Positions 2,864 to 12,024 of a stretch of 64,000 bases of DNA are shown here, in pieces. Source of the stretch: Candidatus Nitrospira nitrosa (lineage in GTDB: Bacteria; Nitrospirota; Nitrospiria; Nitrospirales; Nitrospiraceae); contig NZ_CZQA01000012.1 of assembly GCF_001458735.1 (NCBI RefSeq), positions 124,001-188,000 on the forward strand. Reading direction: 5' to 3'. The notes below the pieces were generated by a model. The model was not told the DNA's origin, made no database searches, and saw nothing but the letters and a program-made list of their open reading frames with translations. Position numbers and translations under genes: made by a program. Positions within the stretch are counted from its first letter, which is position 1. Each line of letters opens with the position of its first letter.

Positions 2864-3034
2864 TATGGGGTTGTGAGCCTATCTCCAGCCATAGCCGGTG
2901 TCAAGAAACTGCATTGAAGTGCTCGTCCCTCGTGAGCTAACTGCTCACTCCCTGCATGGTTGCAGGTATCCATGACTTTCTCCATAATGCCCCCTTCTGC
3001 CCTGGACTGCCTTGAAGAAGGAGACAAGCCTGCC

Positions 3035-4924
3035 ATGAGTGATCAGATCGAGACTCTCTTAAAGGAAAGTCGGACCTATCAGCCGACTGCCAAGACGATC
3101 TCTGCAGCCTACATCAAAGAGTACGAAACCGAGTACAAGAAGTCCATCGCGGATCCGGAGACGTTCTGGAGTAATGCAGCCAAGGAACTCGAGTGGTTTG
3201 CGCCTTGGAACAAGGTCTTGGAGTGGGACTATCCATGGGCGAAATGGTTCGTCGATGCGCGATGCAATATCGTCTACAACTGCCTCGACCGTCACGTCAA
3301 AACCTGGCGGAAAAATAAGGTTGCATTAATTTGGGTTGGCGAAAATGACCAGGAACGCATCTTCACGTACGGTGAGCTCTATCGACAGGTCAATCGCTGC
3401 GCTAACGCCTTGAAGAAGCTTGGAGTTCAAAAAGGTGACCGCGTCACCATTTATCTTCCGAAAGTTCCAGAACAAGTCATTGCCATGCTGGCTTGCGCCA
3501 GGATCGGCGCGATCCACAGTGTAGTCTACTCAGGCTTCAGCGCGCCGGCCCTCGCGAGTCGCGTGAACGACGCTGAGGCAAAACTCGTGATCACCGCCGA
3601 TGTCGGCTTCGATCGCGGTAAAGTCATCAACCTGAAGCCCGTGGTGGATGAAGCACTCAAAAGCTGCCCCACCGTCGGCCATGTGGTGGTCGTCCGGCGT
3701 CAGGTGCCTGGGCCAGCGCTTTCAGCCCCAAAGGAAATTGATTGGGGTGACTGGATCAAGCAGGAAAGTGCGCGGTGTGAAGCGGAACAACTCGATGCAG
3801 AAACCCCGCTCTACATCCTCTACACGTCCGGTACAACCGGCAAACCCAAGGGCGTCGTCCATGTCCATGGGGGTTACATGGTCGGCACCTACCTGACGAC
3901 GAAATATGTGTTCGATTTAAAGGACGATGACGTATACTTCTGCGTGGCCGACCCTGGGTGGGTCACAGGCCACAGCTACATCGTCTATGGACCACTGCTG
4001 AATGGCGCGACAATCCTCACGGCAGAAGGAAAGCCTGACTACCCCACTCCAGGACGCTGGTGGGATCTGATCGAACGATACGGCGTCTCCATTTTCTATA
4101 CCACTCCGACAGCTATTCGCCTACTGATGCGCTACGGCGAAGACTGGCCAAAGAAATCTGACCTTTCCACACTCAGAATCCTTGGCAGTGTCGGCGAGCC
4201 CATCAATCCAGAGGCGTGGGAATGGTACTACCGTGTGACCGGTGGGGACAAACCGATCATGGACACCTGGTGGCAGACAGAAACGGGGGCGATTCTGATT
4301 ACTCCGCTTCCCACCGTCCCGCTCAAGCCTGGCTCGGCGACCCGTCCCTTTCTTGGAATTGAAGCCGATGTCGTGGATCGTGCAGGCAACAGCCTCCCAG
4401 CCAATGCGGGTGGCTTTGCCGTCATCAAGAAACCGTGGCCGTCCATGATGCGCACCATTTACAAGGATCCCGAGCGATACAAGACCTACTGGAACACGAT
4501 CCCCAATTGCTATACGGCCGGCGATGTGTGCCATAAAGATGTAGATGGCTACATGTGGTTCATGGGCCGTGCCGACGATGTGATCAAAGTCGCCGGCAAT
4601 CGGCTCGGCACCGCTGAAGTGGAAAGCGCCTTGGTCAGTCACCCCGCCGTCGCGGAAGCTGCCGTCATCGGCAAACCTCATAAGACCGTCGGGGAATCCA
4701 TCAAGGCCTTCATCATCTTGAAACAGGGAGAGCAGGAAAGTCAGGCGTTGATCAAGTCGATCAAGGATCAGGTCTTGAAGGAGTTAGGCAAGATCGGCGT
4801 GCCGTCTGAGATCGATATCGTCTCGTCCCTGCCGAAAACGCGGTCCGGGAAAATCATGCGTCGCGTGCTCAAAGCGAAAGAGCTTGGCCAGGACCCTGGA
4901 GATATCTCGACGATTGAGGAGTAA
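3035..4924 (+). CDS. acs: Acetyl-CoA synthetase
   Basis: An AMP-forming acetate-CoA ligase of 629 residues that converts acetate, ATP and CoA to acetyl-CoA through acetyl-AMP. The N-terminal ACS domain is followed by the adenylate-forming core with the P-loop-like YTSGTTGKPKGVVH, the TWWQTETG motif, the hinge GRADDVIKVAGNRLGTAEVE and the C-terminal SGKIMRR, whose Lys is the residue acetylated in regulated Acs enzymes. The ATG at 3035 has AAGGAG upstream and gives the family's usual N-terminus; a longer reading starts at 2960. It is followed five bases later by a small membrane-protein gene. Confidence 0.95.
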   Translation: MSDQIETLLKESRTYQPTAKTISAAYIKEYETEYKKSIADPETFWSNAAKELEWFAPWNKVLEWDYPWAKWFVDARCNIVYNCLDRHVKTWRKNKVALIWVGENDQERIFTYGELYRQVNRCANALKKLGVQKGDRVTIYLPKVPEQVIAMLACARIGAIHSVVYSGFSAPALASRVNDAEAKLVITADVGFDRGKVINLKPVVDEALKSCPTVGHVVVVRRQVPGPALSAPKEIDWGDWIKQESARCEAEQLDAETPLYILYTSGTTGKPKGVVHVHGGYMVGTYLTTKYVFDLKDDDVYFCVADPGWVTGHSYIVYGPLLNGATILTAEGKPDYPTPGRWWDLIERYGVSIFYTTPTAIRLLMRYGEDWPKKSDLSTLRILGSVGEPINPEAWEWYYRVTGGDKPIMDTWWQTETGAILITPLPTVPLKPGSATRPFLGIEADVVDRAGNSLPANAGGFAVIKKPWPSMMRTIYKDPERYKTYWNTIPNCYTAGDVCHKDVDGYMWFMGRADDVIKVAGNRLGTAEVESALVSHPAVAEAAVIGKPHKTVGESIKAFIILKQGEQESQALIKSIKDQVLKELGKIGVPSEIDIVSSLPKTRSGKIMRRVLKAKELGQDPGDISTIEE

Positions 4925-4929
4925 CGCAC

Positions 4930-5154
4930 GTGGGACGAGGTGGACGAAAACCCGGCGAGCCGATCTATCTGCGACGACACATGATCGCGCTCGCCCTGGC
5001 CGTGGGACTGCCGATTGTCCTGTTGCAACTATATAAGATCTATGTCGGTCCGGTGAGTTTCGATGCCCAGATGGGATTTGGGATTCTCGTCTCCATCCTG
5101 GCCGGTCTCATCCTCTACTACTCCTACCGATCGTCCGCGCAGAATCAGCCGTAG
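4930..5154 (+). CDS. Small two-helix membrane protein
   Basis: A 74-residue protein that starts with GTG five bases after acs and is probably co-transcribed with it. It has a basic N-terminus (MGRGGRKPGEPIYLRRH), a first hydrophobic helix (ALALAVGLPIVLLQLY) and a second (GFGILVSILAGLILYYSY). No enzymatic motif is visible. Its last 43 or so codons are repeated at 5955-6092 beyond the toxin-antitoxin pair. Its function is unknown. Confidence 0.65.
   Translation: MGRGGRKPGEPIYLRRHMIALALAVGLPIVLLQLYKIYVGPVSFDAQMGFGILVSILAGLILYYSYRSSAQNQP
5026..5153 (+). repeat. 128-bp direct repeat, copy A
   Basis: The 3' part of the small membrane-protein gene. By hand alignment it matches 5964-6091 with about 16 substitutions and no gaps over 128 bp. 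The two copies lie 938 bp apart and flank the Phd/RelE pair. Confidence 0.8.
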
Positions 5155-5237
5155 AAACGTGGCTGTCGCTCGCCCCTCGGAATGCCAAGAAAACATGATT
5201 GCTTGATTCAATTTCTGGCCTCATAGAGATCTTAACC

Positions 5238-5275
5238 TTGTGATTGCGCATAATTATGCGTTACATTATGCGCAT
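5238..5275 (+). promoter_or_regulatory. Operator/promoter of the Phd/RelE pair
   Basis: It holds a perfect 14-bp palindrome CGCATAATTATGCG (5247-5260) and a 9-bp inverted repeat TGCGCATAA (5245-5253) / TTATGCGCA (5266-5274), so three half sites lie in about 30 bp. A weak promoter, TTGTGA (5238-5243) and TACATT (5262-5267) with an 18-bp spacer, overlaps them. This fits autoregulation by an antitoxin, as is known for Phd/YefM families. Confidence 0.55.
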
Positions 5276-5297
5276 CACTTACACATTGAGGTAACCC

Positions 5298-5591
5298 ATG
5301 GCCGTGGCATACAAGAAGGACGAAATCCTCAGTGCATCTCGAGTCGCAAGATCCTTTGGAAAAGTGCTGACCGATCTGAAAGCCAGGCATCGGCGCCGGG
5401 TCGTCGTCCTCAAAAATAATCAGGTAGAAGCTGTCATTGTGCCGGTCGATGATTATGAAACGATGGCGGAGGCGCTCGACCTCTTGGAGCACATGGAGAT
5501 CCATCGCCTAGTTACACAGCGGGGGCGCAAGAAAGTGAAGAAAACCGTCCCCCTGGAGGCGCTGCTGAAGGAGCAACGACTTGCGGTATAG
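5298..5591 (+). CDS. Phd/YefM-family antitoxin
   Basis: A 97-residue antitoxin of a type II toxin-antitoxin pair. The N-terminal DNA-binding part reads ILSASRVARSFGKVLTDL, followed by VVVLKNNQVEAVIVPVDDYETM, a typical Phd/YefM signature. The basic C-terminal tail (RGRKKVKKTVPLEALLKEQ) should be the unstructured toxin-neutralising segment. The ribosome-binding site is GAGGTAA before the ATG. Its 3' end overlaps the toxin gene by 11 bp. It probably represses its own promoter through the palindromes just upstream. Confidence 0.85.
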   Translation: MAVAYKKDEILSASRVARSFGKVLTDLKARHRRRVVVLKNNQVEAVIVPVDDYETMAEALDLLEHMEIHRLVTQRGRKKVKKTVPLEALLKEQRLAV

Positions 5592-5892
5592 CGTCGTCTT
5601 CACTGTCGCAGCTGCCGAGGACTTTCGACAGCTTGATGGATCACTGAAAGAACCGGTCTCAAAGCAACTCAGAAAACTCGAAACTGCTCCACGGCTCGGT
5701 GAACATCTTGGTAATCGAGCAGGTCTCGACCTCACCGGCTACTACAAACTCTACGTAGCAAAGAAATCAATCCGTATCGTGTACAGGATTATCGACCACG
5801 AGATCCTGGTCGAAGTCGTTGCGATCGGAAGGCGAGAAGATCTCACGATCTATCAGGAAGCCCTCAAGCGGTTAAAACACAAGAATCGATAG
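5581..5892 (+). CDS. RelE/ParE-family toxin
   Basis: A 103-residue toxin that starts with TTG inside the antitoxin gene (11-bp overlap), which implies translational coupling. The fold signature is clear: YSVVFTVAAAEDFRQLDGSLKEPV, a central KLYVAKKSIRIVYRI strand pair and C-terminal VEVVAIGRREDLTIYQEAL. RelE-type toxins cleave mRNA at the ribosome and ParE types poison gyrase. The sequence is closer to the RelE pattern, but the target cannot be settled by reading. The pair sits between the two copies of the 128-bp repeat. Confidence 0.85.
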   Translation: MRYSVVFTVAAAEDFRQLDGSLKEPVSKQLRKLETAPRLGEHLGNRAGLDLTGYYKLYVAKKSIRIVYRIIDHEILVEVVAIGRREDLTIYQEALKRLKHKNR

Positions 5893-5954
5893 AAGAACTG
5901 TTCATCGGCATCTCCCAAACGTGTCATAAAGGTATTGGCCTCCTAACTTAGGCT

Positions 5955-6092
5955 GTGCTTTTACAGCTGTACAAGATCTATGTTGATCTGGTGAGTTTTG
6001 ATGCACAGATAAGATTTGGGGTGCTCGTCTTCATCCTGGCCGGTCTCATCCTCTACTACACCTACCGATCGTCCGAGCAGAACCAGCCGTAA
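5955..6092 (+). pseudogene. Partial second copy of small membrane protein
   Basis: An open reading segment GTG-CTT-TTA-CAG-CTG-TAC matches VLLQLYKIYV of the gene at 4930-5154 and continues to the same C-terminus (LAGLILYYTYRSSEQNQP, then TAA). The N-terminal 30 or so codons are absent, and a TAG lies just upstream in frame. The nucleotide match is about 112 of 128 at 5964-6091. It is a 5'-truncated duplicate left beyond the toxin-antitoxin pair. Confidence 0.7.
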
Positions 6093-6165
6093 CCACTTCC
6101 AATGATAACGATGCCTGACATTTCTTGAGAGACGGATAGTACTGCGTCCATTGGAGTCCGATGGT

Positions 6166-6510
6166 TTAGGCCCCCTCTGAATCAATGATCTGCTGAATAC
6201 CGCATTTCAACCCTGGGAGTTTCACCTGCACCACATCCCATACCAACTGATAGTCCACCCCAAAGTAACTATGGATCAAGCGGTCGCGCATCCGAGCGAT
6301 CGGACGCCATTCGACTTCAGGATGCGATAACCTGAACTCCTGAGGCAGGTTCTTTACAGCTTCGCCAATAATTTCCAAGCTGCGCACGAATGCGCGGCGC
6401 AGCGTTTCATCATCGGCAAAACTTTCATAGGTCAGGCCATGGCTCCGATCCAGGAGATACGCCACTTCAACAAGGATATGCCGCAAATAGTCACGCGGCT
6501 CGAAGGACAT
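6166..6510 (-). CDS. hepT: HepT-family RNase toxin (DUF86)
   Basis: A 114-residue HEPN protein of the HepT/DUF86 family. The helical N-terminus ([18 protein letters not shown]) is followed by the active-site motif R-x4-H-x-Y in [13 protein letters not shown] (about residues 81-93), which is intact. The preferred start gives MSFEPRDYL; a longer reading to 6576 would overlap the partner more. The gene overlaps the 3' end of the nucleotidyltransferase gene upstream by about 20 bp, the usual order for MntA-HepT modules. In that family MntA AMPylates the HepT Tyr and so silences the RNase. Confidence 0.85.
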
Positions 6511-6808
6511 CGGCAGCCTCAGCCAAGATAGACGGCCCAATAAAAGGCGAGAGGGACTCAGTAGTAACGATTTCAACCTGGCGCCCCAACGTATCTTCGA
6601 GGAGATCCGCCAGCGCCATGAATCGATCGAACGTCTTCACTTTCAGGTCAAACTCGACAAGCACATCCACGTCACTATCGGGACGGGCCTCATTGCGAAG
6701 TACAGAGCCGAAGAGCGCCAATCGACGGACACCAAGACGTCGAACCTCGGAGTCAACGGTTTGCAGCCGCCGGATCGCCTCGTCACGGGTGAGGGACATG
6801 TTACTCAT
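6491..6808 (-). CDS. mntA: MntA-family nucleotidyltransferase antitoxin
   Basis: A minimal nucleotidyltransferase of about 105 residues with the family motif [20 protein letters not shown] (GS-x10-D-x-D), the nucleotide- and metal-binding site. A downstream third carboxylate is likely in QVEIVTTES. It is the upstream gene of the HepT/MntA pair and overlaps it. Three nearby start codons are possible (6823, 6808, 6799) and the ribosome-binding site does not decide between them. It should act as the antitoxin by AMPylating HepT. Confidence 0.85.
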
Positions 6809-6823
6809 AGGATGAACATACAC

Positions 6824-7296
6824 GAAACATCCTATTGATGCCAGACGGAAGGCCTAACAGTTCCGCAGCGTACCGGTAGGCACGACACAGCCGGAAAGTA
6901 CACTTCAGTTGTCAGGACAGTCGCAGAAGTTGAACGGGAGTTGCACTGACGGAGACTAACCTCATCGACACACCTCACTCGTCACGGCATAGGCCACCTC
7001 TTCGCACCTCTCGTCGCCCCTCATGATTCAATATCCTACCTCAGAGAGCAACACCATCTAACCTTCTCTCCTGCCCGGGCACGATTCGCGACTCGCCTCC
7101 AACTGAATGCTCCCACGACCCCCTTTGGACAAAACATTGACGTATTAATTCCTCCAACCGTCAACGTTTTGTAACTATATAACGTATATTTCACTAGGTG
7201 TTTAGTAAATCATTGAAAACCGCACTACATCACTATGGCGCGGCTCTTGCTTGCCTATATCAGCAGTTGTGAGCCTAACCACCCAAGGAGGAATCG
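6824..7296. other. Intergenic region without a gene
   Basis: About 470 bp with no convincing reading frame. The stretch 7130-7240 is AT-rich compared with its surroundings and may hold the promoter of the zinc-ribbon gene, but I see no clear -35/-10 pair. The composition change fits the start of the accessory region that holds the two insertion sequences. Confidence 0.4.
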
Positions 7297-7470
7297 ATGG
7301 AATGTCCGAAGTGTCAGGGGATGATGATGTTGGAGCGGTTCTCGGATTTCTTTATCGTGTTCTACGCCTGGAAATGCATTAACTGCGGGGCGATGATCGA
7401 CCGCACGATTGCCACCAACCGCCGAAAGAGTCTGGCGGCGCGAGAGGTGCAAACCGTTGCGGCAGGCTAA
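7297..7470 (+). CDS. Zinc-ribbon miniprotein, 57 aa
   Basis: A 57-residue protein with a strong ribosome-binding site (AAGGAGG, six bases before the ATG). It begins MECPKCQGMMMLERFSDFF and has a second pair CINCG at about residues 27-31, so CPxC and CxxC form a four-Cys zinc-ribbon. The C-terminus (IDRTIATNRRKSLAAREVQ) is basic and helical. Very short zinc-ribbon proteins with this pattern appear repeatedly in Nitrospira genomes as far as I know; the role is unknown, with nucleic-acid binding possible. It lies just left of the IS30 element and is intact. Confidence 0.75.
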   Translation: MECPKCQGMMMLERFSDFFIVFYAWKCINCGAMIDRTIATNRRKSLAAREVQTVAAG

Positions 7471-7531
7471 GCAGAGATAATATGGGTTTGGAATCCCGTC
7501 GGGAGTCTGTTACCAACATCTTGCTTCTTCT

Positions 7532-8625
7532 TGAATTCAAGGTTGAAGAGCAACACCTGCGGCCCGCGCAAAGACTTCGGCTGGGGTCCGATAGGCGAGG
7601 CATTTCCGGGGTCGATTATTCAATTCCTCCACGACCGACGCAAGTCGGTGTGCCGTGATCGTCGAGAAATCTGTCTGTTTCGGGAAATAATCGCGTAATA
7701 AGCCGTTGGTGTTCTCATTCGTCCCACGTTCCCATGCCGCATAGGGAGCGGCAAAGTACACCTGGAGCCCCAGGGTCCGTTGAAGACAGCGAAACGACGC
7801 CCATTCACTCCCGTTATCCACGGTGAGGGTCCGCCGTACATGCGCTGGAAGCGGGTGCAGAAGTTTCCGCGTGGCCACCGTGACCTCTGTAGCAGTCCGG
7901 CGTGACACCTTGGCCGCCAGAAGAAAGCGACTGCGCCGGTCCACGTGCGTAGCCACGAAGCCGCGCTGGCCTCGACCGACCACGAGATCCCCTTCCCAAT
8001 CTCCCAGGCGTCCTCGGCGTTGTGCAATGGCCGGTCGCTCGGCGAGAGACACGCGTCCTTTGAGGCGTGGAGCACGCGGCCCACTCCCGTAGCGTTTCCG
8101 ACGCCGACAATGGTGGCGGAGGTACCGCGACCAAGATCCTCCCGTGCGGTGATCAGCTGCCAACCATGTATAGATCGTTTGATGGCTGATCCGCATCTGA
8201 GTGGCGTGGGGATAGTCAACCCGCACACGGTGAGCAATCTGTTCGGGCGACCAGCGGCACTGCAGCTTCTCTTGGACATAAGTTGCCAGCATACCACTCG
8301 TCAGATGTGACCGCCGAATGTTACGGCGACGGCGCTGCGCATCGCAATGGGCCCAGTACCCAGCATAGGCTCCACTTCCATCACCGTTCCGTCGCAGTTC
8401 CCGGCTGATGGTACTCGGCGCTCGCCCGAGCTGGGCTGCAATGGACCGAATAGACCAGCCAAGCATTCGCATCGGGGCCATCATTGACCGTTCTTCCAAG
8501 GTGAGGTGCTGATAGGGCATGGCAGACTCCTCGTTGCTGGAGGTGAAATGTCTGCCCCACTCTATCGAACCGCACCACCCAAATCTCTTCGTCGCGACCT
8601 GCGTTGCACTTCAAATTAGAATTCA
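7532..8625 (-). mobile_element. IS30-family insertion sequence 1
   Basis: About 1.09 kb. The imperfect terminal inverted repeats at 7532-7556 and 8601-8625 share TGAATTC, TTGAAG and GCAAC at equal spacing (about 20 of 25). It carries one intact transposase gene whose stop codon lies inside the left repeat. No matching target duplication could be read at the borders. It sits 28-35 bp from the left end of the neighbouring IS110-type element. Confidence 0.8.
7537..8520 (-). CDS. IS30-family transposase
   Basis: A 327-residue transposase. The N-terminal helix-turn-helix (YQHLTLEERSMMAPMRMLG, RSIAAQLGRAPSTISREL) is typical of IS30. The DDE catalytic core is intact: DWEGDLVVG, TVDNGSEWASF and the E in ERGTNENTNGLLRDYFP. 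The full length is normal for the family, so the element may be active. Confidence 0.92.
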   Translation of the reverse strand: MPYQHLTLEERSMMAPMRMLGWSIRSIAAQLGRAPSTISRELRRNGDGSGAYAGYWAHCDAQRRRRNIRRSHLTSGMLATYVQEKLQCRWSPEQIAHRVRVDYPHATQMRISHQTIYTWLAADHRTGGSWSRYLRHHCRRRKRYGSGPRAPRLKGRVSLAERPAIAQRRGRLGDWEGDLVVGRGQRGFVATHVDRRSRFLLAAKVSRRTATEVTVATRKLLHPLPAHVRRTLTVDNGSEWASFRCLQRTLGLQVYFAAPYAAWERGTNENTNGLLRDYFPKQTDFSTITAHRLASVVEELNNRPRKCLAYRTPAEVFARAAGVALQP

Positions 8626-8738
8626 TCCCTTAAGCTATCATTAAAAGACTCCCGATAATCATCTCGAAGGCTCCTCTCTTGAAGAGTAGAGTCGTTGCTA
8701 ACGCGACGGGCTCATCCACTTTAACCGAGGAGGTTGCG

Positions 8739-9755
8739 ATGATGTGTTATGCGGGCATTGATCTCCATGCCACGAATAGTGTGCTGGTCGTGATTGATGA
8801 AGCGGATCGAGTGCTGTATCAGAAACGCCTCCGCAATGACCTGGCCGTGATCTTCACGGCCTTAACACCGTATCAGACCACGCTGCAGGGCGTGGTCGTT
8901 GAGTCCACCTATAATTGGTACTGGTTAGTCGACGGGCTCATGGAAGCAGGGTACCGGGTCCACCTCGCTCATGCACCAGCCCTGCCGCAGTATAGTGGGC
9001 TCAAGCATGTTGACGATCAACACGATGCGCAGTGGTTAGCCCATTTACTCCGGCTAGGTTTGCTCCCTACCGGGTACATTTACCCCAAAGCGGAACGGGC
9101 CGTGCGGGACTTGTTGCGGAAGCGCAGTCAGTTGGTTCGGCACAAGACCATGGTCGTGCTGAGCCTACAAAGCCTGCTGACACGACTGACTGGCAATCGG
9201 CTCTCCCTCCCTCGGCTTCGACAGCTCACCCCAGAGGGCATTCAGGCACTTGTGCCATTTCCCGAACATGTGCAATCGGTCAGCAGTTCGTTGGCTGTGC
9301 TGCAATGTCTGGAGCACGAGATTCACACGATTGAGGGCACGGTTCGGGAAGCGGGGCGGACTCAGCCGGGCTATGTGCTCTTACAGACCGTCCCCGGAAT
9401 CGGGCCGATCTTGGCGGGCACCATTCTCCTGGAAGCCGGTGACCTGCGGCGGTTTGCGACCGTGGGACACTTCGCCTCCTACTGTCGCTGTGTCGGCAGC
9501 GAACATGTGAGTAACGGCAAACGCAAAGGGGCTGGCAACACGAAGAACGGCAACAAGTATTTAAGCTGGGCGTTCATCGAGGCGGCGCACTTCGCCATTC
9601 GCTATGAGGCCGTGATTCGCACGTATTATCAGCGCAAGCAGGCACGGACGCATCCCCTTGTGGCGCTGAAGGCCGTGGCCCATAAATTGGCGCGGGCCTG
9701 CTATCACATGCTCCGTGCGCAGGTGCCATTCGATCTGTCCCGCGCTTTTGGCTAG
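8739..9755 (+). CDS. IS110-family DEDD transposase/recombinase
   Basis: The ATG at 8739 follows GAGGAGG and gives about 338 residues; a longer frame starts at 8679. The N-terminal RuvC-like DEDD domain shows the D in YAGIDLHATN, the E in VVVESTYNWYWL and the D residues in KHVDDQHDAQWLAHLL. The C-terminal Transposase_20 domain shows LLQTVPGIGPILAGTILLE (helix-hairpin-helix) and GAGNTKNGNKYLSWAFIEAA with the catalytic Ser. It is complete. Members of this family recombine DNA under the direction of a bridge/seek RNA encoded in the same element. Confidence 0.93.
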   Translation: MMCYAGIDLHATNSVLVVIDEADRVLYQKRLRNDLAVIFTALTPYQTTLQGVVVESTYNWYWLVDGLMEAGYRVHLAHAPALPQYSGLKHVDDQHDAQWLAHLLRLGLLPTGYIYPKAERAVRDLLRKRSQLVRHKTMVVLSLQSLLTRLTGNRLSLPRLRQLTPEGIQALVPFPEHVQSVSSSLAVLQCLEHEIHTIEGTVREAGRTQPGYVLLQTVPGIGPILAGTILLEAGDLRRFATVGHFASYCRCVGSEHVSNGKRKGAGNTKNGNKYLSWAFIEAAHFAIRYEAVIRTYYQRKQARTHPLVALKAVAHKLARACYHMLRAQVPFDLSRAFG

Positions 9756-11370: not shown

Positions 11371-12024
11371 TCAGATCAGTCCACGCTTCTGCAGGTAGTC
11401 TTTATCAATGACTGGCGTGGTCTTCGGCAGGTGGCTCCGTTCTTGGAGCAGCCGTTCGACATACTTGCCGATGAGGTCGGATTCGAGATTCACAGTGTCG
11501 TTCACCTGCTTGAGGCCCAGTATGGTCACCTTCGCCGTATGTGGGATGATGGCAACGCTGAATCCTTGCTCGCTCACGGTATTGATCGTGAGACTGATGC
11601 CATCAACGGTAACCGAACCCTTTGCGACACAATAGCGCAGAATCTCCGGAGGCGCTCCGATGGTAAACACGATAGCATTGGCGTCTTGCTGTCGGCTGCG
11701 GATCACACCGACTCCATCAACATGTCCCGCCACCAGATGTCCGCCGATGCGTTCATTGAGCTTCATGGCCCGTTCAAGATTGACCGGCATGCCCACGGCA
11801 AAACTGCCGAGGGTCGTGACTGAGAGCGTTTCAGGCGAGACTTCCACGGAAAAATCGCGTTCGCTTCGTGAGACGACCGTCAGACAAATCCCATTCACGC
11901 TCACACTATCGCCGATTTTCAGATCACTCATCACCGTCGAAGCCAAAATCGTCAGCTTGGCTCCAGCCAGCGACTTGTTCATGACCGTAATCCCGCCCAT
12001 TTCTTCGACAATACCGGTAAACAT
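11371..12024 (-). CDS. ribE: Riboflavin synthase, alpha subunit
   Basis: A 217-residue enzyme with two lumazine-binding repeats. The N-terminus MFTGIVEEMG is diagnostic, and repeat 1 has GDSVSVNGICLTVV and HLVAGHVDGVG. Repeat 2 has AKGSVTVDGISLTIN and FSVAIIPHTAKVT. It dismutates two 6,7-dimethyl-8-ribityllumazine molecules to riboflavin. Its ATG overlaps the stop codon of the 38-codon membrane-protein frame upstream. It is the last gene of a long minus-strand run that also contains ribD. Confidence 0.95.
   Translation of the reverse strand: MFTGIVEEMGGITVMNKSLAGAKLTILASTVMSDLKIGDSVSVNGICLTVVSRSERDFSVEVSPETLSVTTLGSFAVGMPVNLERAMKLNERIGGHLVAGHVDGVGVIRSRQQDANAIVFTIGAPPEILRYCVAKGSVTVDGISLTINTVSEQGFSVAIIPHTAKVTILGLKQVNDTVNLESDLIGKYVERLLQERSHLPKTTPVIDKDYLQKRGLI

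What the first reader, a model, noticed from the sequence alone, without database searches (positions are those of the whole stretch)
5017..6092. Toxin-antitoxin pair inserted between two copies of a 128-bp repeat
The end of the small membrane-protein gene (5026-5153) is repeated at 5964-6091 with about 16 substitutions, and the Phd/RelE module lies between. The downstream copy keeps the frame and stop but lacks the 5' part. This suggests that the module arrived together with a 3'-end replacement fragment, as integrating elements do to restore a gene, or that a tandem duplication was split by the module.
Basis: seen in the sequence. Interest (0 to 1): 0.5.

Follow-up and report, generated by a model that had tools for sequence, protein, structure and literature searches.

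The report
Toxin-antitoxin swap site with scars
In Nitrospira bacteria the gap between two housekeeping genes is a spot where small toxin-antitoxin cassettes appear to be swapped between species together with the tails of the neighbouring genes, and the 138-base repeat is most likely a leftover gene tail from such an exchange.

Summary
The repeat is real: window 5016-5153 and 5954-6091, 138 bp, 19 mismatches, with a Phd-like/ParE-RelE-like pair between. The ancestral locus is acs > small gene > < riboflavin synthase (ribE). Of 75 fetched Nitrospira loci, 14 have nothing between small gene and ribE; 49 carry cargo, with a toxin-antitoxin (TA) type protein in 34. 5'-truncated tails of BOTH flanking genes lie inside the cargo: 17 fragments, all in native orientation, 14 reaching the gene's 3' end. 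A near-identical genome pair differs by small-gene tail plus cargo, and ribE tails are exchanged between cargo-bearing genomes but hardly at empty sites. So cargo seems to move by homologous recombination in the flanking gene ends, like a minimal mobile element; one-sided events leave tails as scars. For this window, six relatives have small gene - TA (or its decayed remnant) - Zn-ribbon-like gene without the second tail, so copy 2 more likely came with the adjacent HepT/MntA module than with Phd/RelE. New member of a known kind.

The parts
2960..4924 (+). acs, acetate-CoA ligase; left conserved flank
   Evidence: TIGR02188 876.9 bits, cut-off 724.95
4930..5154 (+). 74-aa gene, flank gene next to the exchange site; no Pfam or NCBIfam match
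   Evidence: match in 74 of 79 genus genomes; no family
5016..5153 (+). repeat copy 1, 3' end of the small gene
5298..5591 (+). Phd/YefM-like antitoxin ORF
   Evidence: PF02604 29.0 bits, cut-off 29.8
5581..5892 (+). ParE/RelE-superfamily toxin ORF
   Evidence: PF05016 30.5 bits, cut-off 23
5946..7026 (.). segment present in G000 and G006 but absent from G060 between TA and the Zn-ribbon-like gene; ends approximate
   Evidence: window 5945 and 7027 lie 7 nt apart in G060
5954..6091 (+). repeat copy 2, 5'-truncated small-gene tail, read as a recombination scar
6166..6576 (-). HepT-like ORF
   Evidence: PF01934 87.0 bits, cut-off 23.5; NF047751 30.4 bits, cut-off 60
6491..6823 (-). MntA-like nucleotidyltransferase ORF
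   Evidence: PF01909 47.4 bits, cut-off 21; NF047752 47.1 bits, cut-off 60
7297..7470 (+). 57-aa ORF with two CxxC motifs, called Zn-ribbon-like here by eye; recurrent cargo
   Evidence: 11 loci share it (cluster 4); no Pfam or NCBIfam match
11371..12024 (-). ribE, riboflavin synthase; right conserved flank, convergent
   Evidence: two lumazine-binding domains PF00677, 161.3 bits

Best explanation
The gap between acs-small gene and ribE in Nitrospira is an exchange site for small cassettes, chiefly TA-type modules. Shown by comparison: cargo differs between close relatives together with the 3' ends of the flanking genes, which points to homologous recombination inside those gene ends. Inferred: incoming DNA from related species usually replaces the cargo by two crossovers; sometimes it pairs at one end only and is joined illegitimately at the other (homology-facilitated illegitimate recombination). 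Then cargo is added, the resident module stays, and a 5'-truncated tail of a flanking gene remains inside as a scar. In this window the resident order was probably small gene - Phd/RelE - Zn-ribbon-like gene, and a piece carrying a small-gene tail plus HepT/MntA was added before G000 and G006 split. Copy 2 (5954-6091) is that scar and decays. The TA pair itself should act as an ordinary type II pair (antitoxin neutralises an mRNA-cleaving or gyrase-type toxin), which was not tested.
For: 17 fragments of acs/small gene and ribE in 16 of 49 cargo intervals, 17 of 17 in native orientation, 14 of 17 reaching within 6 nt of the gene's 3' end. 38 other window ORFs used as queries gave no tail fragments (four gave other hits). 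G064/G065: 98.2% identical over 2.1 kb on the acs side and 99.6% over 1.9 kb from the ribE end, but 2 differences in small-gene nt 1-53 and 74 in nt 54-225, with 46 against 5060 bp of intergenic DNA. G014: two small-gene copies with one difference in nt 1-168 and ten in 169-225; the first tail is identical to G012's and followed by the same DNA, the second 96.5% like G005's and followed by Phd/RelE. ribE's last 180 nt less identical than the rest in 40 of 41 pairs with cargo against 1 of 8 empty pairs; disjoint pairs 10 of 11 against 2 of 5 (0 of 5 with a 120-nt cut), acs control 6 of 10. G060 and five relatives lack the second small-gene tail. ComEC and DprA genes present in G000.
Against: No donor of copy 2 was found; it is closest to its own genome's copy 1 (86%), and the fragments of G004 (99%), G015 acs (98%) and G033 (100%) are close copies of their own gene, which suits local duplication as well. 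The small gene shows no systematic tail effect (3' half worse than 5' half in 26 of 57 cargo pairs). In G014 the acs piece before copy 2 is only 92% like its own acs although the small-gene copies agree, which neither simple scheme explains. The joint at 5946 and 7026 is ambiguous: against G009 and G076 the left and right alignments overlap. Five HigA-linked ribE fragments share one junction and are not independent events. Nearly all genomes are MAGs or drafts. No transformation was shown.
Confidence: 0.62

Rival explanations
1. One reading: Phd/RelE plus a fresh small-gene 3' end entered by recombination inside the small gene, and the native tail (copy 2) was pushed downstream, where it stays next to HepT/MntA.
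For: Phd/RelE keeps a near-constant distance to the small gene in seven loci; in G017 and G059 a ribE fragment keeps the distance of an intact ribE to its DUF433 neighbour (46-47 against 43-51 bp), as expected of a displaced native tail; in G014 the second tail is the one next to Phd/RelE, as in G005. Copy 2 has the commoner base (ACC) where copy 1 of G000 and G006 has TCC.
Against: Six relatives have Phd/RelE or its remnant between small gene and the Zn-ribbon-like gene without copy 2; copy 1 is about as close to G031 and G075 in its 3' half (0.88, 0.91) as acs is (0.90, 0.91), so it looks native; no small gene directly followed by HepT/MntA was seen.
Confidence: 0.25
2. Tandem duplication of the small-gene end within the genome, later split by insertion of the TA module.
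For: Copy 2's best match is its own copy 1 (86%); some other fragments are 98-100% like their own gene (G004, G015, G033).
Against: No locus has two copies with nothing between; the same kind of fragment occurs for ribE on the other flank; duplication alone does not explain exchanged gene tails.
Confidence: 0.08
3. Site-specific integration at gene 3' ends or integron cassettes moved by an integrase acting in trans.
For: Gene-3'-end fragments are a usual sign of integrase targets (general knowledge). An integron integrase (TIGR02249, 473 bits, cut-off 265) lies in the G054 interval, with partial matches in G051, G052 and G056. attC-like hairpins: 11 in the intervals against 0 and 1 in the flanking coding DNA.
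Against: The same 11 compare with 5-10 in five shuffles of the intervals. No integrase between the two copies here, none hit in the G000 interval. ribE changepoints scatter, mostly 64-226 nt from the end.
Confidence: 0.05

Closest known systems
Minimal mobile elements (MMEs) of Neisseria
   Same: Two conserved genes with different whole-gene cassettes between them in different genomes, incorporated through homologous recombination (definition as given in a passage of PMC3082526)
   Different: Here between species of a genus, mainly TA-type cargo, and with truncated tails of both flanking genes left inside
Effector-immunity arrays of Vibrio cholerae type VI secretion clusters
   Same: Incoming module anchored by homology on one side and joined illegitimately on the other, shifting old parts, a gene 3' end among them, downstream (model proposed in passages of PMC5361080)
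   Different: There toxin genes are displaced and immunity genes kept; here whole TA modules and tails of housekeeping genes are kept, on both flanks
Homology-facilitated illegitimate recombination
   Same: Homologous at one end, illegitimate at the other (abstract start of PMC3240628; passages of PMC2884548)
   Different: Known mainly from transformation experiments; here only inferred from genome comparison
TA cassettes reported in Ca. Nitrospira nitrosa
   Different: The passages shown do not mention this site, gene-tail exchange or scars

Membership tests
Minimal mobile element | Two conserved flanking genes | tested here: met
   small gene in 74 of 79 genus genomes; 48 of 75 fetched loci have small gene and ribE within the stretch held (14 empty and 34 with cargo)
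Minimal mobile element | Different whole-gene cassettes between them | tested here: met
Minimal mobile element | Incorporated by homologous recombination in the flanks | tested here: met
   indirect: exchanged gene tails
Minimal mobile element | No mobility genes of its own (recalled as part of the concept) | tested here: inconclusive
   IS30- and IS110-type transposase ORFs lie in the G000 interval and an integron integrase in G054; none lies between the two copies
Homology-facilitated illegitimate recombination | Homology at one end, illegitimate joint at the other | tested here: inconclusive
   one-sided gene tails, but the joint in this window is ambiguous and donors are unknown
Homology-facilitated illegitimate recombination | Uptake of linear DNA | not testable with these tools
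   ComEC and DprA genes present, which also occur in bacteria not known as transformable
Integrative element with att site in a gene 3' end | Integrase inside the element | tested here: not met
   between the copies only the two TA ORFs were recognised
Integrative element with att site in a gene 3' end | Constant crossover site | tested here: not met
   ribE changepoints scatter
Integron cassette | attC sites bounding the cassettes | tested here: not met
   11 attC-like hairpins against 5-10 in shuffles; none in the G000 interval
Phd/YefM antitoxin (PF02604) | Score at or above the Pfam cut-off | tested here: not met
   29.0 bits against 29.8; like a member by position and partner only
ParE/RelE toxin (PF05016) | Score at or above the Pfam cut-off | tested here: met
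   30.5 bits against 23
HepT/MntA type VII TA (NF047751, NF047752) | Score at or above the NCBIfam cut-offs | tested here: not met
   30.4 and 47.1 bits against 60 and 60; the wider Pfam families PF01934 and PF01909 are met

The most novel reading that the evidence does not exclude
Addiction ratchet: because losing a resident TA module poisons the cell, exchanges that simply replace cargo are selected against, and the rare one-sided events that add a module without removing the old one survive. TA cargo would thus turn an ordinary exchange site into an accreting one, with gene-tail scars as its fossil record. Fragments occur in 14 of 34 TA-bearing intervals and 2 of 15 without a detected TA (one-sided Fisher p 0.053; 13 of 26 and 1 of 8 among closed intervals, p 0.067). 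This is suggestive only, is not corrected for relatedness, and G065, a plain replacement, has no detected TA while decayed TAs in five relatives show that modules can also be lost.
Probability: 0.15. Interest if true: 0.7.

Novelty: new member of a known kind. Interest (0 to 1): 0.42.

Why it matters
It suggests how small TA modules without mobility genes spread through a genus of hard-to-grow nitrifiers: by riding on recombination in conserved neighbouring genes. The truncated gene tails give a readable record of one-sided additions in nature. The site also warns that the tail of a housekeeping gene can have a history different from the rest of the gene. If the ratchet reading held, it would link TA addiction to the way genomes grow.

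Tried and rejected
Integron idea: an integron-type integrase in G054 prompted a scan for attC-like hairpins; the count did not exceed shuffles, and Rfam gave no match at gathering scores in 13 loci. Site-specific integration at gene ends: rejected for lack of an integrase between the copies and for scattered changepoints. A tail effect within the small gene was not found: 3' half worse than 5' half in 26 of 57 cargo pairs and 3 of 8 empty pairs. No donor of copy 2 was found. Pfam gave nothing for the small gene and the Zn-ribbon-like ORF, nor for one VapB-like cargo ORF; RHH_1, RelB-like and DUF4160 matches stayed under their cut-offs. Of the 34 TA-bearing intervals, four rest on DUF433 alone (G030, G032, G033, G051), three on a HigA-like HTH protein alone (G031, G072, G078) and two on a degraded Phd alone (G009, G075); that DUF433 and this HTH family are antitoxins is recalled, not tested.

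Rows dropped or merged: the ribE hits of G025 and G073b end at contig ends and were dropped; G000 and G006 were counted as one event, and the acs and small-gene hits of G004 and of G014 were each merged, so 22 clusters became 17 fragments. G015's two fragments lie on either side of a 100-base N run and are weak. Constant spacings have exceptions: DUF433 in G020 and G051, MazF in G054, HigA in G017, G027 and G031. One search pairs share genomes, and its 'cargo' class needs only one of the two to carry cargo (one mixed pair, G064/G065, is the one exception to the trend); one search repeats the test with disjoint, unmixed pairs. In one search the acs query was out of frame by mistake; one search replaced it.

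Full report
Observation. Copy 1 is the 3' end of a 74-aa gene that follows acs; copy 2 is a 5'-truncated tail matching codons 30-74. Between them lie a PhdYefM-like and a ParE/RelE-like ORF. Such a repeat is not by itself remarkable: twenty 20-kb tiles of the genome plus 60 kb of the window gave 28 direct and 2 inverted self-matches, several of them between whole paralogous genes.

The locus. The window lies in a 4.42-Mb genome of 15 contigs. Of 37 loci found for the small protein in the named genome collection, 35 are titled Nitrospira, one Nitrosospira and one Nitrospiraceae. The small protein has a match in 74 of 79 genus genomes. I fetched 75 loci from 74 genomes. In 14 the small gene is followed at -4 to 46 bp by convergent ribE (riboflavin synthase, two lumazine-binding domains): these are empty sites. 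Eleven distant genomes in which acs and ribE were not recognised nearby, the 14 empty sites and one contig end were set aside, leaving 49 intervals of at least 100 bp, 34 of them closed by ribE (510-11,054 bp), 218.8 kb in all. A TA-type protein (ten queries, E up to 1e-8) was found in 34 of 49, and in 26 of the 34 closed ones. Modules include Phd/RelE, HigA-like, DUF433, MazF/PemK, ParE and two kinds of HepT/MntA; a DUF5615/PIN-like ORF lies with DUF433 in G055.

Scars on both sides. Besides copy 2, the intervals hold fragments of acs/small gene in G004, G014, G015, G025 and G033 and of ribE in G007, G015, G017 (two), G027, G031, G036, G054, G055, G059 and G078. After dropping two contig-end hits and merging, 17 fragments remain, all in native orientation; 14 of 17 reach within 6 nt of the gene's 3' end. 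In G059 an acs tail and a small gene of a divergent type follow a toxin fragment. As a control, 40 ORFs of at least 120 aa from the window, acs and ribE among them, were compared with the intervals. Six had hits: acs and ribE gave tail fragments; of the other 38, four had hits of another kind (two full-length genes in the open, evidently rearranged G012 interval, one transposase, one 34%-identical domain match).

Gene tails are exchanged. Among genome pairs with 90-99.9% identity in the 5' part of ribE, the last 180 nt are less identical in 40 of 41 pairs with cargo and in 1 of 8 pairs of empty sites. With disjoint pairs (5' identity at least 85%) the figures are 10 of 11 and 2 of 5 (10 of 11 and 0 of 5 for the last 120 nt); the acs end gives 6 of 10 in the same cargo pairs. 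Changepoints are scattered, mostly 64-226 nt from the end. The small gene shows no systematic contrast between its halves (26 of 57 cargo pairs, 3 of 8 empty pairs), but single cases are clear. G064 and G065 are 98.2% identical over 2.1 kb on the acs side and 99.6% over 1.9 kb from the ribE end; within the small gene they have 2 differences in nt 1-53 and 74 in nt 54-225, and 46 against 5060 bp follow. G014 has two small-gene copies with one difference in nt 1-168 and ten in 169-225; the first tail is identical to that of G012 and followed by the same DNA, the second is 96.5% like that of G005 and followed by Phd/RelE. Some modules keep a fixed distance to the gene tail: MazF 380 bp from ribE in four genomes; DUF433 43-51 bp from ribE in four and 46-47 bp from a ribE fragment in two; exceptions are listed under tried and rejected. 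A unit of ribE tail plus HigA-like gene aligns at 78-88% across five species, so a scar can travel and these five are not independent events.

What happened here. Window 5155-5912 aligns to G060 4-760 and window 7027-7530 to G060 801-1304; in local alignment window 5945 and 7027 come to lie 7 nt apart in G060. G009, G027, G036, G075 and G076 have the same order with a decayed Phd, and none of these six has a second small-gene tail. Of the genus genomes, only G000 and G006 showed this stretch as a whole; HepT/MntA of the same kind lie in the acs-ribE gap of G055 (83% DNA) and G020 (75%), but not directly behind a small gene. I therefore think that Phd/RelE was resident and that copy 2 came with HepT/MntA. 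Against G009 and G076 the two alignments overlap, so the joint is not exact, and the reverse order stays possible. Copy 2 is closest to copy 2 of G006 (89%) and then to copy 1 of G000 and G006 (86%); no donor was found.

Mechanism. Exchange of gene tails with cargo points to recombination inside the flanking genes. Additions with a truncated tail on one side are best explained by homology at one end and an illegitimate joint at the other (inferred). Some fragments are 98-100% like their own gene (G004, G015, G033), which suits recent local copying as well. G000 has ComEC and DprA genes, which permits but does not show DNA uptake. Site-specific integration and integron cassettes were tested and not supported, although an integron integrase is part of the cargo in G054.

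Comparison with what is known. The definition of minimal mobile elements (passage of PMC3082526) is met for flanking genes, cassettes and, indirectly, flank recombination. The nearest process in print that I saw is the proposed successive displacement in Vibrio cholerae effector-immunity arrays (passages of PMC5361080), with related ideas for E. coli variable segments (passages of PMC2884548). Five searches (Nitrospira with TA and hotspot; comammox Nitrospira with TA and horizontal transfer; minimal mobile element with TA; TA with flanking core genes, homologous recombination and hotspot; Nitrospira with natural transformation, homologous recombination and comammox) listed 23 entries in all; by title and start of abstract none is about this site. 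One of them, on Ca. Nitrospira nitrosa (passages of PMC5596200), mentions multiple TA cassettes among genome-specific genes but, in the passages shown, not this locus. That library lacks most subscription journals.

Noticed in passing
L088/L125 (G054), about 5.76-7.06 kb downstream of the small-gene stop: Integron integrase gene (TIGR02249, 473 bits) inside the acs-ribE gap; partial matches in the same gap of G051, G052 and G056.
   Followed up: partly
L102 (G073 C55) and L112 (G073 C70): The locus of this genome is on two contigs, one ending in a ribE tail and the other starting in an acs tail, as if a piece from acs tail to ribE tail had been added in tandem.
   Followed up: no
window 7537-9755: IS30-type and IS110-type transposase ORFs within the cargo of G000.
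   Followed up: no
L157 2272-4041: 68-bp direct repeats at the ends of two short ORFs on either side of an ATPase-like ORF, possibly a second scarred site in G000.
   Followed up: no
L155 4124-4643: An 82-bp repeat of the start of a 1046-aa ORF that looks like a restriction subunit by eye, just upstream of it.
   Followed up: no
L076, L083, L087-L090, L094, L095, L099 and others: In a group of species acs and the small gene are 522-724 bp apart instead of 2-18 bp; what lies between was not examined.
   Followed up: no
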